A stretch of 64,000 nt of DNA from Thermaerobacter sp. PB12/4term. Its GTDB lineage: Bacteria; Bacillota; Sulfobacillia; Thermaerobacterales; Thermaerobacteraceae. How positions within the stretch are numbered: the first letter of the stretch is position 1; each line of letters opens with the position of its first letter. This document shows positions 23,261-49,285 of the stretch, piece after piece. The position numbers and the translations under genes were made by a program. The notes under the pieces were generated by a model. It was not told the DNA's origin, did no database searches, and saw only the letters and a list, made by a program, of their open reading frames with translations. The DNA is taken from positions 310,001-374,000 of the forward strand of contig NZ_CP048407.1 in assembly GCF_003403315.2 (NCBI RefSeq), in the 5' to 3' direction.

Positions 23261-23304
23261 GCAGTGCACAGGTGCCGTGGCGGAAGGTACCGCAGGAAAA
23301 CGGG

Positions 23305-23345
23305 CAGGGGCCGGCGCGGGCCAACGGCGCCGGCCCCTGTTCCTT
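23305..23345 (+). terminator. Terminator of the complex I operon
   Basis: A perfect 13-bp inverted repeat (23305-23317 with 23327-23339, 9-base loop) starts 44 bases after the nuoN stop and is followed by TTCCTT. It lies between convergent operons and may stop transcription from both sides, although the minus-strand T-run is less clear. Confidence 0.75.
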
Positions 23346-23400
23346 GGCCCCCGGTCCTTGCGGGCCGGGTCCTTGCGTTGCAGCCCTGGCCCTTGCCTCG

Positions 23401-44653: not shown

Positions 44654-45646
<993 letters not shown>

Positions 45647-45914
45647 GGGCCACCTCGGTTCGCAGGGGAATGGATCGGGAAGAACCCGCGCCGCGCCAAC
45701 CTCGCGCCCCCCGGCCCTGAAGACCCGCGCGGTCGCGGCCGGGGTGCAGCGAAGGCCGGCCCTAGGTCCAGCAGGGATCCGCCCGGGGCACGGCCGCGGA
45801 CCGCGGCGGAACCCTGGCAGTAGCTTTCCACTTGCGAACAGCTATTCCCTGCGCCCGGGTTGCAGGTTTGCCGTGCCAAACCCTGCCCGGCGCCCATGGG
45901 GAGGAGGGAAGACC

Positions 45915-47132
45915 GTGGCCGGAACCGGGGCCGGGGACGTGCGGTTCGACTACGATGCGGTGTTCGACCCCGACGACTATCTGTACTTCTATGAACCCAT
46001 CCTGACTCCCGAGCGCAACCAGCGGGAGGTGGCCCTGGTCTGGACACTGCTGGACCTGCGGCCGGGAGAGGCGGTGCTGGACCTGGCCTGCGGCCACGGC
46101 CGGCTGGCGGTACCCCTGGCCACCCTGGGTGCCCGGGTGACGGGGCTCGACCGCAGCGCGGGGTTCCTCGCCCGGGCGCGGGAGGAGGCGGCCCGCCAGG
46201 GTGTGGAGGTGGAATGGGTCCAGGGCGACATGCGCCGGCTGCCCTGGCGGGACCGGTTCGATGCCGCCTTCAACGTGTTCACCAGCTTCGGCTACTTTGC
46301 GGACGAAGAGAACCTGGCTGTGCTGCGGCAGGTGGCGCAGGCCCTGCGGCCGGGAGGCCGGTTCCTCCTGGAGACGGTGTTCCGGGACGCCGTGCTGGCC
46401 CGTTTCGCCCCCTACAACGTGGTGGAACGGGGGGACGACGTCCTCATCGACGCCCACCGCTGGGATCCGGTGACGGGGCGGATGATCACCCGGCGCACCG
46501 TCCGGCGGGCGGGGCAGGTACGGCGGGGGGAGTTCTTCGTCCGCCTGTACACGCCGCCGGAGCTGGCGACCCTGTTCGAGCAGGCAGGGCTCGAGGTCAC
46601 GGGGTTCTATGACGAGACGGGAGCCGCCCTGTCGGCCCAGAGCCGGCGCCTGGTGGTGGTGGGCCGCAAGCGGCCGGCAGGCCGCCGGGTGCAGGGGGGC
46701 GGGGCGGAGGGAACCCCGCCGGGGGCCCTGGTGCCGGCGGCCCTAGCCGAGTTCCTCCGCCTCTACCATGCCGGCCGGTTCTTCGAGAGCCACGAGGTGC
46801 TGGAAGAGGCCTGGCACCGCACCCGCAGCGATTTCTACCACGGGCTCATCATCCTGGCCGCCGCCTTCGTGCGGCGGGACCGGGGAACGCCCCGGGGCGT
46901 GCGGCGCAACCTGGCCAAGGCCCGCCGGTACCTGGAACGTTATCGTCCCCGCTACCTGGGGCTCGACGTGGAGGCCGTCCTGGCCTTCATCGACCGCCAG
47001 ATCCCGGCGGTGGAACAGGCCGGCGACCCCGAGGGGGATGCGCTGCGCCGGCTGGTGCCGGACCTGCCCCTTCCGGTTCATCCCGGCTGGGTGCGGGGGG
47101 ACGAGCCGGAGTGGCAGGACGAGGTGGTGTAG
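45915..47132 (+). CDS. SAM-dependent methyltransferase fused to a DUF309 domain
   Basis: 405 residues from GTG 45915 behind GGGGAGGAGGGAAG. Residues about 35-200 are a class I methyltransferase: VLDLACGHGRLAVPLATLGARVTGLDRS (motif I and the acidic end of beta-2), VQGDMRRLPWRDRFDAAFNVFTSFGYF (motifs II-III). After a Gly-rich linker, residues 275-345 are DUF309: FLRLYHAGRFFESHEVLEEAWHRTRSDFYHGLIILAAAFVRR and the RNLAKARRYLERYRPRYLGLDVEAVL tail. DUF309 is normally a separate protein of about 130 residues. Substrate unknown. A frame-preserving junction with no stop argues against misassembly. Confidence 0.85.
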   Translation: MAGTGAGDVRFDYDAVFDPDDYLYFYEPILTPERNQREVALVWTLLDLRPGEAVLDLACGHGRLAVPLATLGARVTGLDRSAGFLARAREEAARQGVEVEWVQGDMRRLPWRDRFDAAFNVFTSFGYFADEENLAVLRQVAQALRPGGRFLLETVFRDAVLARFAPYNVVERGDDVLIDAHRWDPVTGRMITRRTVRRAGQVRRGEFFVRLYTPPELATLFEQAGLEVTGFYDETGAALSAQSRRLVVVGRKRPAGRRVQGGGAEGTPPGALVPAALAEFLRLYHAGRFFESHEVLEEAWHRTRSDFYHGLIILAAAFVRRDRGTPRGVRRNLAKARRYLERYRPRYLGLDVEAVLAFIDRQIPAVEQAGDPEGDALRRLVPDLPLPVHPGWVRGDEPEWQDEVV

Positions 47133-47326
47133 GGAGAGCGGTGGCGGGGCTTGCGGAGGCTTGCGGCCTGGCCTGGGCGGCCAGGTTCGGAAAGCGGCTC
47201 CCGCCGGCGGGCGGTGAACGGGTCCGATAGAATGGGTTCGGCAAAAGGCGGGGAACGTCCTGGGCGGCACTAAGAAAATCCGCGTGCCGAGGTAACAAAA
47301 GCCACGTGCTGGGGAGGGACAAGCCC

Positions 47327-47788
47327 ATGGTGAAGGTGGGCGAGCAGGCGCCGGACTTTACCGCCGTGAACGACCGCGGGGAGACGGTGCGGCTGTCCGA
47401 TTTCCGCGGCCGCAAGGTGGTGCTGTACTTCTACCCCAAGGACGACACACCCGGCTGCACGCGGGAAGCCTGCAGCTTCCGGGACGACTATGGGCAGCTG
47501 CAGGAAGCCGGCGCGGTGGTACTGGGGGTGAGCCCGGATCCGGTGGAATCCCACGTTAAATTCCGGGAGAAGTACGGCTTGCCCTTTCCGCTCCTGTCGG
47601 ACCCCGATCACCAGGTGGCCGAGGCCTACGGGGTCTGGAAGGAGAAGCGGATGTACGGCCGGACCTACTGGGGCATCGAGCGGACCACCTTCGTCCTGGA
47701 CGAGGAGGGCAAGGTGCTGGCGGTGATCCGGGGCGTCAAGCCCGAGGAGCACCCGCGCCGGGCCCTGAAGGCGCTGGGGGCGGCCTAG
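47327..47788 (+). CDS. bcp: Thioredoxin-dependent peroxiredoxin, Bcp/PrxQ family
   Basis: 153 residues from ATG 47327, behind GGGGAGGGACAAGCCC; a GTG seven codons upstream is less likely. Atypical 2-Cys peroxiredoxin: peroxidatic Cys44 in [14 protein letters not shown] with resolving Cys49 five residues later. [27 protein letters not shown] and the [14 protein letters not shown] strand complete the fold. It reduces hydrogen and organic peroxides with thioredoxin. A TAGAAT hexamer at about 47228 may belong to a promoter but no -35 is obvious. Confidence 0.93.
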
Positions 47789-48249: not shown

Positions 48250-48279
48250 TTGCTGTCCGAGGATGTCGATTGCTAGGAT
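48250..48279 (+). promoter_or_regulatory. Possible promoter of selC
   Basis: TTGCTG (48250-48255) and TAGGAT (48274-48279) are 18 bases apart, each matching four of six sigma-A consensus bases. The tRNA 5' end is 22 bases after the -10, so the leader would be about 15 bases. Confidence 0.4.
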
Positions 48280-48300
48280 GGGGGCGGCGGTCGCCGTCGA

Positions 48301-48394
48301 GGGAGCAGCTGGTGACTGGTGTCGCCCCTGGTCTTCAAAACCAGTGGGGGGCGGCGATACCGTCCCCGGTGGGTTCGATTCCCACATGCTCCCG
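48301..48394 (+). tRNA. selC: Selenocysteine tRNA (anticodon TCA)
   Basis: 94 bases ending in discriminator G, CCA not encoded. Features special to tRNA(Sec) are visible. The acceptor arm is extended (48301-48308 with 48386-48393; seven pairs, the eighth G-A). The D-stem is six pairs with a four-base loop (48311-48316, 48321-48326). The anticodon TCA at 48335-48337 lies in loop CTTCAAA. The variable arm is long, with an eight-pair stem (48347-48354, 48360-48367), and the T-stem GTGGG/CCCAC has loop TTCGATT. It decodes UGA as selenocysteine with SelA, SelB and SelD, none of which is in the window. Confidence 0.93.
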
Positions 48395-48475
48395 CAAGGT
48401 TGGCATTCCGTGGTGCCAGTGCACCGTGCGTCCGGCGCACCGTGCCGGCGGCACGCCGTGCAACAGGATCCGCGT

Positions 48476-48523
48476 GGTGAAGGGCCATGCCCGGGGCGGC
48501 GTCCCTTGGCATGGCCCTTCACC
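48476..48523 (+). terminator. Large perfect hairpin downstream of selC
   Basis: A perfect 16-bp inverted repeat (48476-48491 with 48508-48523, 16-base loop) is followed by TTACCTTCC. It lies 81 bases after selC and 81 bases before the next gene's start. Best read as the selC terminator, though the T-run is interrupted. The sequence between selC and the hairpin has two GCACCGTGC copies. Confidence 0.55.
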
Positions 48524-48604: not shown

Positions 48605-49285
48605 TTGCAATACCGGATCCTGCACCAGCCCAGCTACGCCCTGGCCATCGTCGAGCTGGAGCCGGGAGAGGAACTGCAGGCCGAGCCTGGGGCCCTGGTC
48701 TCCATGAGCGGCAACGTATCCCTGCAGGCGGAGGCCCGGGGCGGGCTGCTGGGCGCCCTGAGCCGCTCCCTCCTGGGCGGGGAGTCCTTCTTCACCAGCC
48801 GGTACCGGGCGGACGGGGCGCGGGGTGAGGTGATGCTGGCCCCCGCGTTGCCCGGCGACATCACGGTGCTGGAGCTGGCCGGCGAGGTCGTGTACCTCAA
48901 GTCGGGTGCCTTCCTGGCCGGGGCCACGACCCTGACCGTCGACGCGCGCTGGGGTGGTGCCCGGGGCTTCTTCGGCAGCGGGGGGCTCTTCCTGCTGCGG
49001 GTCGCGGGGCACGGGCCCCTCTTCATCAACAGCTACGGGGCGCTGCACCGCAAGGAGCTGGCACCAGGCCAGCGCTATGTGGTCGACACCGGCCACGTGG
49101 TCGCCTTCACCGACGGCATGGCCTTCCAGGTGCGAGCGGCCGGGAGCGGCTGGTTCAGTTCCATCGCCAGCGGCGAAGGCCTGGCCTGCGAGTTCACCGG
49201 ACCCGGCGCCGTCTACATCCAGACCCGGTCGGAGGCCTCATTCCTGGGCTGGCTGATCCCGAAGCTCCCGTCCAGGCGGGAATGA
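48605..49285 (+). CDS. AIM24/TIGR00266 family protein
   Basis: 226 residues from TTG 48605 behind GAGGGAGGGGCGG. Double-psi beta-helix family: LQYRILHQPSYALAIVELEPGEELQAEPGALVSMSGNVSLQ, LLGGESFFTSRYRA, LAPALPGDITVLELAGEVVYLKSGAFLA and the Gly-rich SGEGLACEFTGPGAVYIQTR tail are typical. The family is widespread; the mitochondrial Aim24 helps shape inner-membrane complexes, but the bacterial role is unsettled. No signal or TM segment. The upstream open frame passes through selC and is not coding. Confidence 0.88.
   Translation: MQYRILHQPSYALAIVELEPGEELQAEPGALVSMSGNVSLQAEARGGLLGALSRSLLGGESFFTSRYRADGARGEVMLAPALPGDITVLELAGEVVYLKSGAFLAGATTLTVDARWGGARGFFGSGGLFLLRVAGHGPLFINSYGALHRKELAPGQRYVVDTGHVVAFTDGMAFQVRAAGSGWFSSIASGEGLACEFTGPGAVYIQTRSEASFLGWLIPKLPSRRE

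What the first reader, a model, noticed from the sequence alone, without database searches (positions are those of the whole stretch)
48250..48523. A selenocysteine tRNA gene with its own promoter and hairpin
The 94-base structure with six-pair D-stem, eight-pair variable arm, extended acceptor and anticodon TCA is specific to tRNA(Sec). So this organism probably recodes UGA, and genes elsewhere that seem to end at TGA may be selenoproteins. It is alone here, without selA, selB or selD.
Basis: partly seen in the sequence, partly recalled or inferred. Interest (0 to 1): 0.65.

Follow-up and report, generated by a model that had tools for sequence, protein, structure and literature searches.

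The report
Selenocysteine tRNA gene, complete pathway elsewhere
This is a genuine gene for the transfer RNA that inserts selenocysteine, and although it sits alone here, the rest of the standard bacterial selenocysteine machinery and at least three selenoprotein genes lie elsewhere on the same chromosome, so it is an ordinary, apparently working example of a well-known system.

Summary
Window 48301-48394 (+) is selC: Rfam tRNA-Sec 82.2 bits against a gathering score of 47, ARAGORN tRNA-SeC; of 31 predicted pairs across relatives, 20 show two-sided compensation. The interpretation also holds. Three genes with an in-frame TGA at a conserved redox-active position were found: selD (KAG-U-GCK), a SelW-like protein (CTSU) and a two-domain protein disulfide oxidoreductase (UPYC). 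Each has a bacterial SECIS-type hairpin with loop NGUNN, 17-32 nt after the UGA. The promoter is plausible: an extended -10 motif is conserved in three of four genus members. The strong downstream hairpin is real but lacks a T-run. Two corrections: the eighth acceptor "pair" is G.A, common in bacterial tRNA-Sec, and CCA is not encoded. Verdict: ordinary member of the known bacterial Sec-decoding trait; low interest.

The parts
48301..48394 (+). selC, tRNA-Sec(UCA), 94 nt including discriminator G48394; CCA not encoded
   Evidence: Rfam RF01852 82.2 bits over 48301-48393; ARAGORN 48301-48395; covariation across 27 relatives; 3' end GCAA
48335..48337 (+). anticodon TCA, reads UGA
   Evidence: invariant CTTCAAA loop in the class alignment
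48311..48326 (+). D arm: 6-bp stem, 4-nt loop, the SelA recognition feature
   Evidence: fold; role of the D arm from PMC7609411
48347..48367 (+). variable arm, 8-bp stem with 5-nt loop
   Evidence: fold, covarying in relatives
48250..48279 (+). promoter-like: -35-like TTGCTG 48250-48255, 18-nt spacer, extended -10 TGC-TAGGAT (TAGGAT 48274-48279)
   Evidence: conserved in three of four genus members, one of which has otherwise unlike upstream DNA; TGNTANNNT enriched upstream of selC in the class; not found by the strict consensus scan
48476..48523 (+). hairpin with 16-bp outer stem downstream of selC, candidate terminator without a T-run
   Evidence: -42.4 kcal/mol, z -5.5; two other genus members have a hairpin of related sequence directly after selC (by eye); function inferred
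47306..47788 (+). upstream neighbour: PrxQ/BCP-type peroxiredoxin with Cys, not Sec; not part of the Sec system
   Evidence: PRK09437 162.8 bits vs cut-off 140; what looks like its C-terminal end also lies upstream of selC in two other genus members (by eye)
48608..49285 (+). downstream neighbour: AIM24 / TIGR00266 protein, not part of the Sec system
   Evidence: TIGR00266 242 bits, PF01987

Best explanation
48301-48394 is selC, the tRNA that decodes UGA as selenocysteine in a complete bacterial Sec pathway. It is probably transcribed alone from an extended -10 promoter at 48250-48279 and probably ends at or before the hairpin at 48476-48523; RNase P and the CCA-adding enzyme would finish it, since CCA is not encoded. 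SerRS charges it with serine, SelA converts Ser to Sec using selenophosphate from SelD, and SelB delivers Sec-tRNA to UGA codons followed by a SECIS hairpin. Targets found here are SelD itself, a SelW-like protein and a two-domain thioredoxin-fold protein disulfide oxidoreductase (PDO, homologue of the AhpF N-terminal domain). Shown by sequence: all genes, the in-frame TGAs and the hairpins. Inferred: transcription, processing, charging and actual Sec insertion.
For: tRNA-Sec model hit and class-wide compensatory pairs. selA, selB with C-terminal SelB winged helices, selD in the same single-contig genome. selD TGA at the conserved catalytic position, GKAG-U-GCKLGP, kept in nearly all class SelDs. 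SelW-like PF10262 protein with CTSU, TGA kept in eight genomes. PDO with UPYC, closest solved relative the protein disulfide oxidoreductase 1a8l at 8e-52, TGA kept in seven genomes. Each has an NGUNN hairpin at the spacing of the bacterial SECIS model; a stem of five or more pairs with such a loop follows only 1.6% of ordinary codons here. The selD hairpin covaries: 6 two-sided cells, 0 of 500 shuffles reach it, while a rival hairpin nearer the UGA does not. Across 61 genomes, 40 have both tRNA-Sec and SelD, none tRNA-Sec only, 4 SelD only, 17 neither; Fisher p about 1e-11.
Against: No expression or selenium-labelling data. No strict-consensus promoter or terminator. The promoter motif is absent in one genus member, L056. 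NGUNN was chosen after seeing the hairpins, although it matches the published model. Four class genomes have SelD without a detected tRNA-Sec; all are draft assemblies of 200 or more contigs.
Confidence: 0.97

Rival explanations
1. A relic or pseudo-selC: the tRNA gene survives but Sec decoding has been lost.
For: selC is isolated and CCA is not encoded.
Against: selA, selB, selD all open and above curated cut-offs; tRNA nearly identical in four genus members with the body conserved while flanks diverge; three in-frame-TGA genes conserved across genera.
Confidence: 0.02
2. A tRNA-Ser, allo-tRNA or suppressor-like tRNA with a UCA anticodon, not tRNA-Sec.
For: tRNA-Ser also has a long variable arm, and other genomic tRNAs reach 47-52 bits with the tRNA-Sec model.
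Against: The next-best match in the genome scores 30 bits lower; 6-bp D stem with 4-nt loop is a tRNA-Sec feature; ARAGORN calls SeC.
Confidence: 0.01

Closest known systems
Bacterial tRNA-Sec (selC; Rfam RF01852), e.g. of E. coli and Aquifex aeolicus
   Same: UCA anticodon, 6-bp D stem with 4-nt loop, long variable arm, 8/5-type acceptor branch, G discriminator
   Different: Eighth acceptor position is G.A rather than a standard pair (26 of 30 class members, also seen by eye in other Bacillota); CCA not encoded in this genus
Bacterial Sec-decoding trait (selABCD plus SECIS-bearing UGA genes), PMC1273633 and PMC1794560
   Same: All four components plus selenoproteins; SelD itself a selenoprotein
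   Different: Genes scattered, no ybbB/mnmH, no Sec formate dehydrogenase
Symbiobacterium thermophilum selenoproteome (PMC1794560, Table 3)
   Same: Shares the SelD, SelW-like and AhpF-N-terminal-domain homologue selenoproteins
   Different: Symbiobacterium also has Sec forms of FdhA, GrdA, GrdB, HesB-like, peroxiredoxin and DsbG-like; the FdhA, HesB and AhpC/TSA relatives here carry no TGA; GrdA and GrdB not tested

Membership tests
Bacterial tRNA-Sec (RF01852) | Covariance-model score above gathering | tested here: met
   82.2 vs 47 bits
Bacterial tRNA-Sec (RF01852) | UCA anticodon | tested here: met
Bacterial tRNA-Sec (RF01852) | 6-bp D stem with 4-nt loop and long variable arm | tested here: met
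   fold, covariation
Bacterial tRNA-Sec (RF01852) | 13-layer acceptor/T branch (8/5) | tested here: inconclusive
   7 + 5 standard pairs plus a G.A opposition; G-C at that place in 4 of 30 class members
Bacterial Sec-decoding trait | selA present | tested here: met
   TIGR00474 578 bits, PF03841 498 bits
Bacterial Sec-decoding trait | selB present with SECIS-binding winged helices | tested here: met
   TIGR00475 351 bits; PF09106, PF09107
Bacterial Sec-decoding trait | selD present | tested here: met
   TIGR00476 409 bits
Bacterial Sec-decoding trait | At least one gene with in-frame UGA at a conserved Cys/Sec site and a SECIS | tested here: met
   SelD, SelW-like, PDO
Bacterial Sec-decoding trait | Selenocysteine actually present in the proteins | not testable with these tools
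   needs 75Se labelling or mass spectrometry
Selenouridine trait | ybbB/mnmH present | tested here: not met
   TIGR03167 no match

The most novel reading that the evidence does not exclude
The Sec-decoding trait in this genus may be kept by a very small, purely thiol-redox selenoproteome (SelD, SelW-like, Sec-PDO) with neither Sec formate dehydrogenase nor selenouridine tRNA modification, so that a two-protein redox need plus SelD's own Sec would sustain the whole pathway.
Probability: 0.35. Interest if true: 0.3.

Novelty: new member of a known kind. Interest (0 to 1): 0.12.

Why it matters
It settles that genes in this genome and its relatives must be annotated with UGA read as Sec where a SECIS follows; otherwise selD, the SelW-like gene and the PDO are cut short or missed. 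It also gives a class-wide set of covarying tRNA-Sec and selD SECIS sequences. Beyond annotation there is little surprise.

Tried and rejected
Codon-bias scans for in-frame TGA in about 5-6% of the genome recovered selD (only) but missed SelW and PDO, so their negative result for the window is weak; the three window candidates look like neighbouring genes in one frame (by eye). Alignments of relatives that mixed orientations were discarded (in part, replaced). The hairpin closest to the selD UGA was considered as SECIS and rejected: 74% of cells paired and little covariation above shuffles, against 90% and clear covariation for the second. The idea that the G.A eighth pair is special to this class was dropped: tRNA-Sec genes from other Bacillota and other phyla near selD show it too (read by eye because the script's parsing of those records failed). 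The DsbG probe gave no own-genome match; the MsrA and XdhC-like matches had no stop inside in the own genome. Scans of the PDO with wrong coordinates were repeated for Pfam and PDB in the right frame.

Full report
What is there. Window 48301-48393 matches the Rfam tRNA-Sec model end to end at 82.2 bits (gathering score 47), and ARAGORN independently calls tRNA-SeC with anticodon TCA. The predicted fold is the tRNA-Sec cloverleaf with a 6-bp D stem and 4-nt D loop, an 8-bp variable arm and a 5-bp T stem. In the whole genome the next-best match to the model is 30 bits lower. Twenty-seven class members align without trouble; of 31 predicted pairs, 20 show at least one two-sided compensatory change.

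The extended acceptor stem has seven standard pairs and a G.A at the eighth place; 26 of 30 class members have G.A and four have G-C, and the same G.A is seen in tRNA-Sec genes of other Bacillota and other phyla (read by eye), so it is an ordinary variant. The CCA end is not encoded in this genus (GCAA in four of four), although 24 of 30 class members encode it, so a CCA-adding enzyme would be needed (inference).

Flanks. The strict sigma-70 scan finds nothing, but TTGCTG, 18 nt, then an extended -10 TGC-TAGGAT at 48250-48279 is kept in three of four genus members, including one whose upstream DNA is otherwise unlike ours. TGNTANNNT occurs in the last 45 nt upstream in 11 of 30 selC genes against about one expected from mononucleotide shuffles (relatedness not corrected for). 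The hairpin at 48476-48523 is very stable (-42.4 kcal/mol, z -5.5) but is not followed by a T-run. Two other genus members have a hairpin with a similar stem directly behind selC (by eye). A terminator is the likeliest role; this is inference. The neighbours are a Cys-type peroxiredoxin upstream, whose end also seems to precede selC in two other genus members (by eye), and an AIM24-family gene downstream.

Is the pathway complete? The window is 310001-374000 of a single-contig genome of 2,820,915 bases. It encodes selA at 1381414-1382520, selB at about 1495.4-1497.6 kb with its C-terminal winged helices, and selD at 974 kb. Across 61 genomes of the class, 40 have both tRNA-Sec and SelD, 17 neither, four SelD only and none tRNA-Sec only (Fisher p about 1e-11).

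What does it decode? selD has an in-frame TGA at the catalytic position (GKAG-U-GCKLGP), which is also TGA in nearly all class SelDs. A SelW-like gene (PF10262, NF041051, TIGR02174) reads EYCTS-U-GYLP, with the TGA kept in G000-G004, G006, G007 and G013. A protein at 250048-250698 on the minus strand has two thioredoxin-type domains, the first with CPYC and the second with U-PYC. Its closest solved relatives are protein disulfide oxidoreductases such as 1a8l (8e-52), and its TGA is kept in seven genomes. These are known selenoprotein kinds: SelD, SELENOW-like CxxU, and the homologue of the AhpF N-terminal domain with UxxC (PMC13188914; PMC1794560).

SECIS. The published bacterial model asks for a 3-9 nt loop with G in its first two positions, a stem of 4-16 pairs and 16-37 nt from the UGA (PMC13188914). 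All three genes meet it with a five-base loop of form NGUNN: GGUCC in selD and PDO, CGUGU in SelW, with 32, 17 and 21 nt between UGA and loop. After ordinary in-frame codons of this genome such a hairpin with five or more pairs occurs at 1.6%. The selD hairpin is supported by covariation (90% of cells paired, 6 two-sided cells, 0 of 500 shuffles as high) and a rival hairpin closer to the UGA is not.

What is absent. The only formate-dehydrogenase-alpha-like gene is below the cut-off and has no TGA; no ybbB; no TGA in eight AhpC/TSA matches, in the HesB-like gene or in the MsrA and XdhC-like matches. The list of three is a minimum, because the genome was searched only by family and by targeted stretches.

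Verdict. The finding is correct and ordinary: a functional-looking selC of a complete, dispersed bacterial Sec pathway. From memory, genome size and high G+C suggest a Thermaerobacter-like bacterium; this was not tested.

Noticed in passing
L064 / G007 (C48:10398-10491 and C42:15153-15249): One class relative carries two tRNA-Sec matches (76.9 and 61.4 bits); two selC genes in one genome are unusual and could be contamination or divergence.
   Followed up: no
L037 / G025 (C218:10327-11253 and C180:15216-16133): One relative has two SelD genes, one with and one without the in-frame TGA, and no detected tRNA-Sec.
   Followed up: no
window 23303-23399 (+): ARAGORN reports a tRNA of undetermined type with a four-base anticodon gttc; Rfam does not support it, so probably a false positive.
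   Followed up: partly
G000 1841750-1842418 and 2115423-2116583 (-): Two XdhC-like genes match the N-terminal part of E. coli YqeB; whether they serve selenium-dependent or ordinary molybdenum hydroxylases is open.
   Followed up: no
window 45582-47132 (+): A methyltransferase domain is followed in the same open frame by what looks like a DUF309-type segment (FFESHEVLEEAW), a possible fusion; the second part was not scanned.
   Followed up: no
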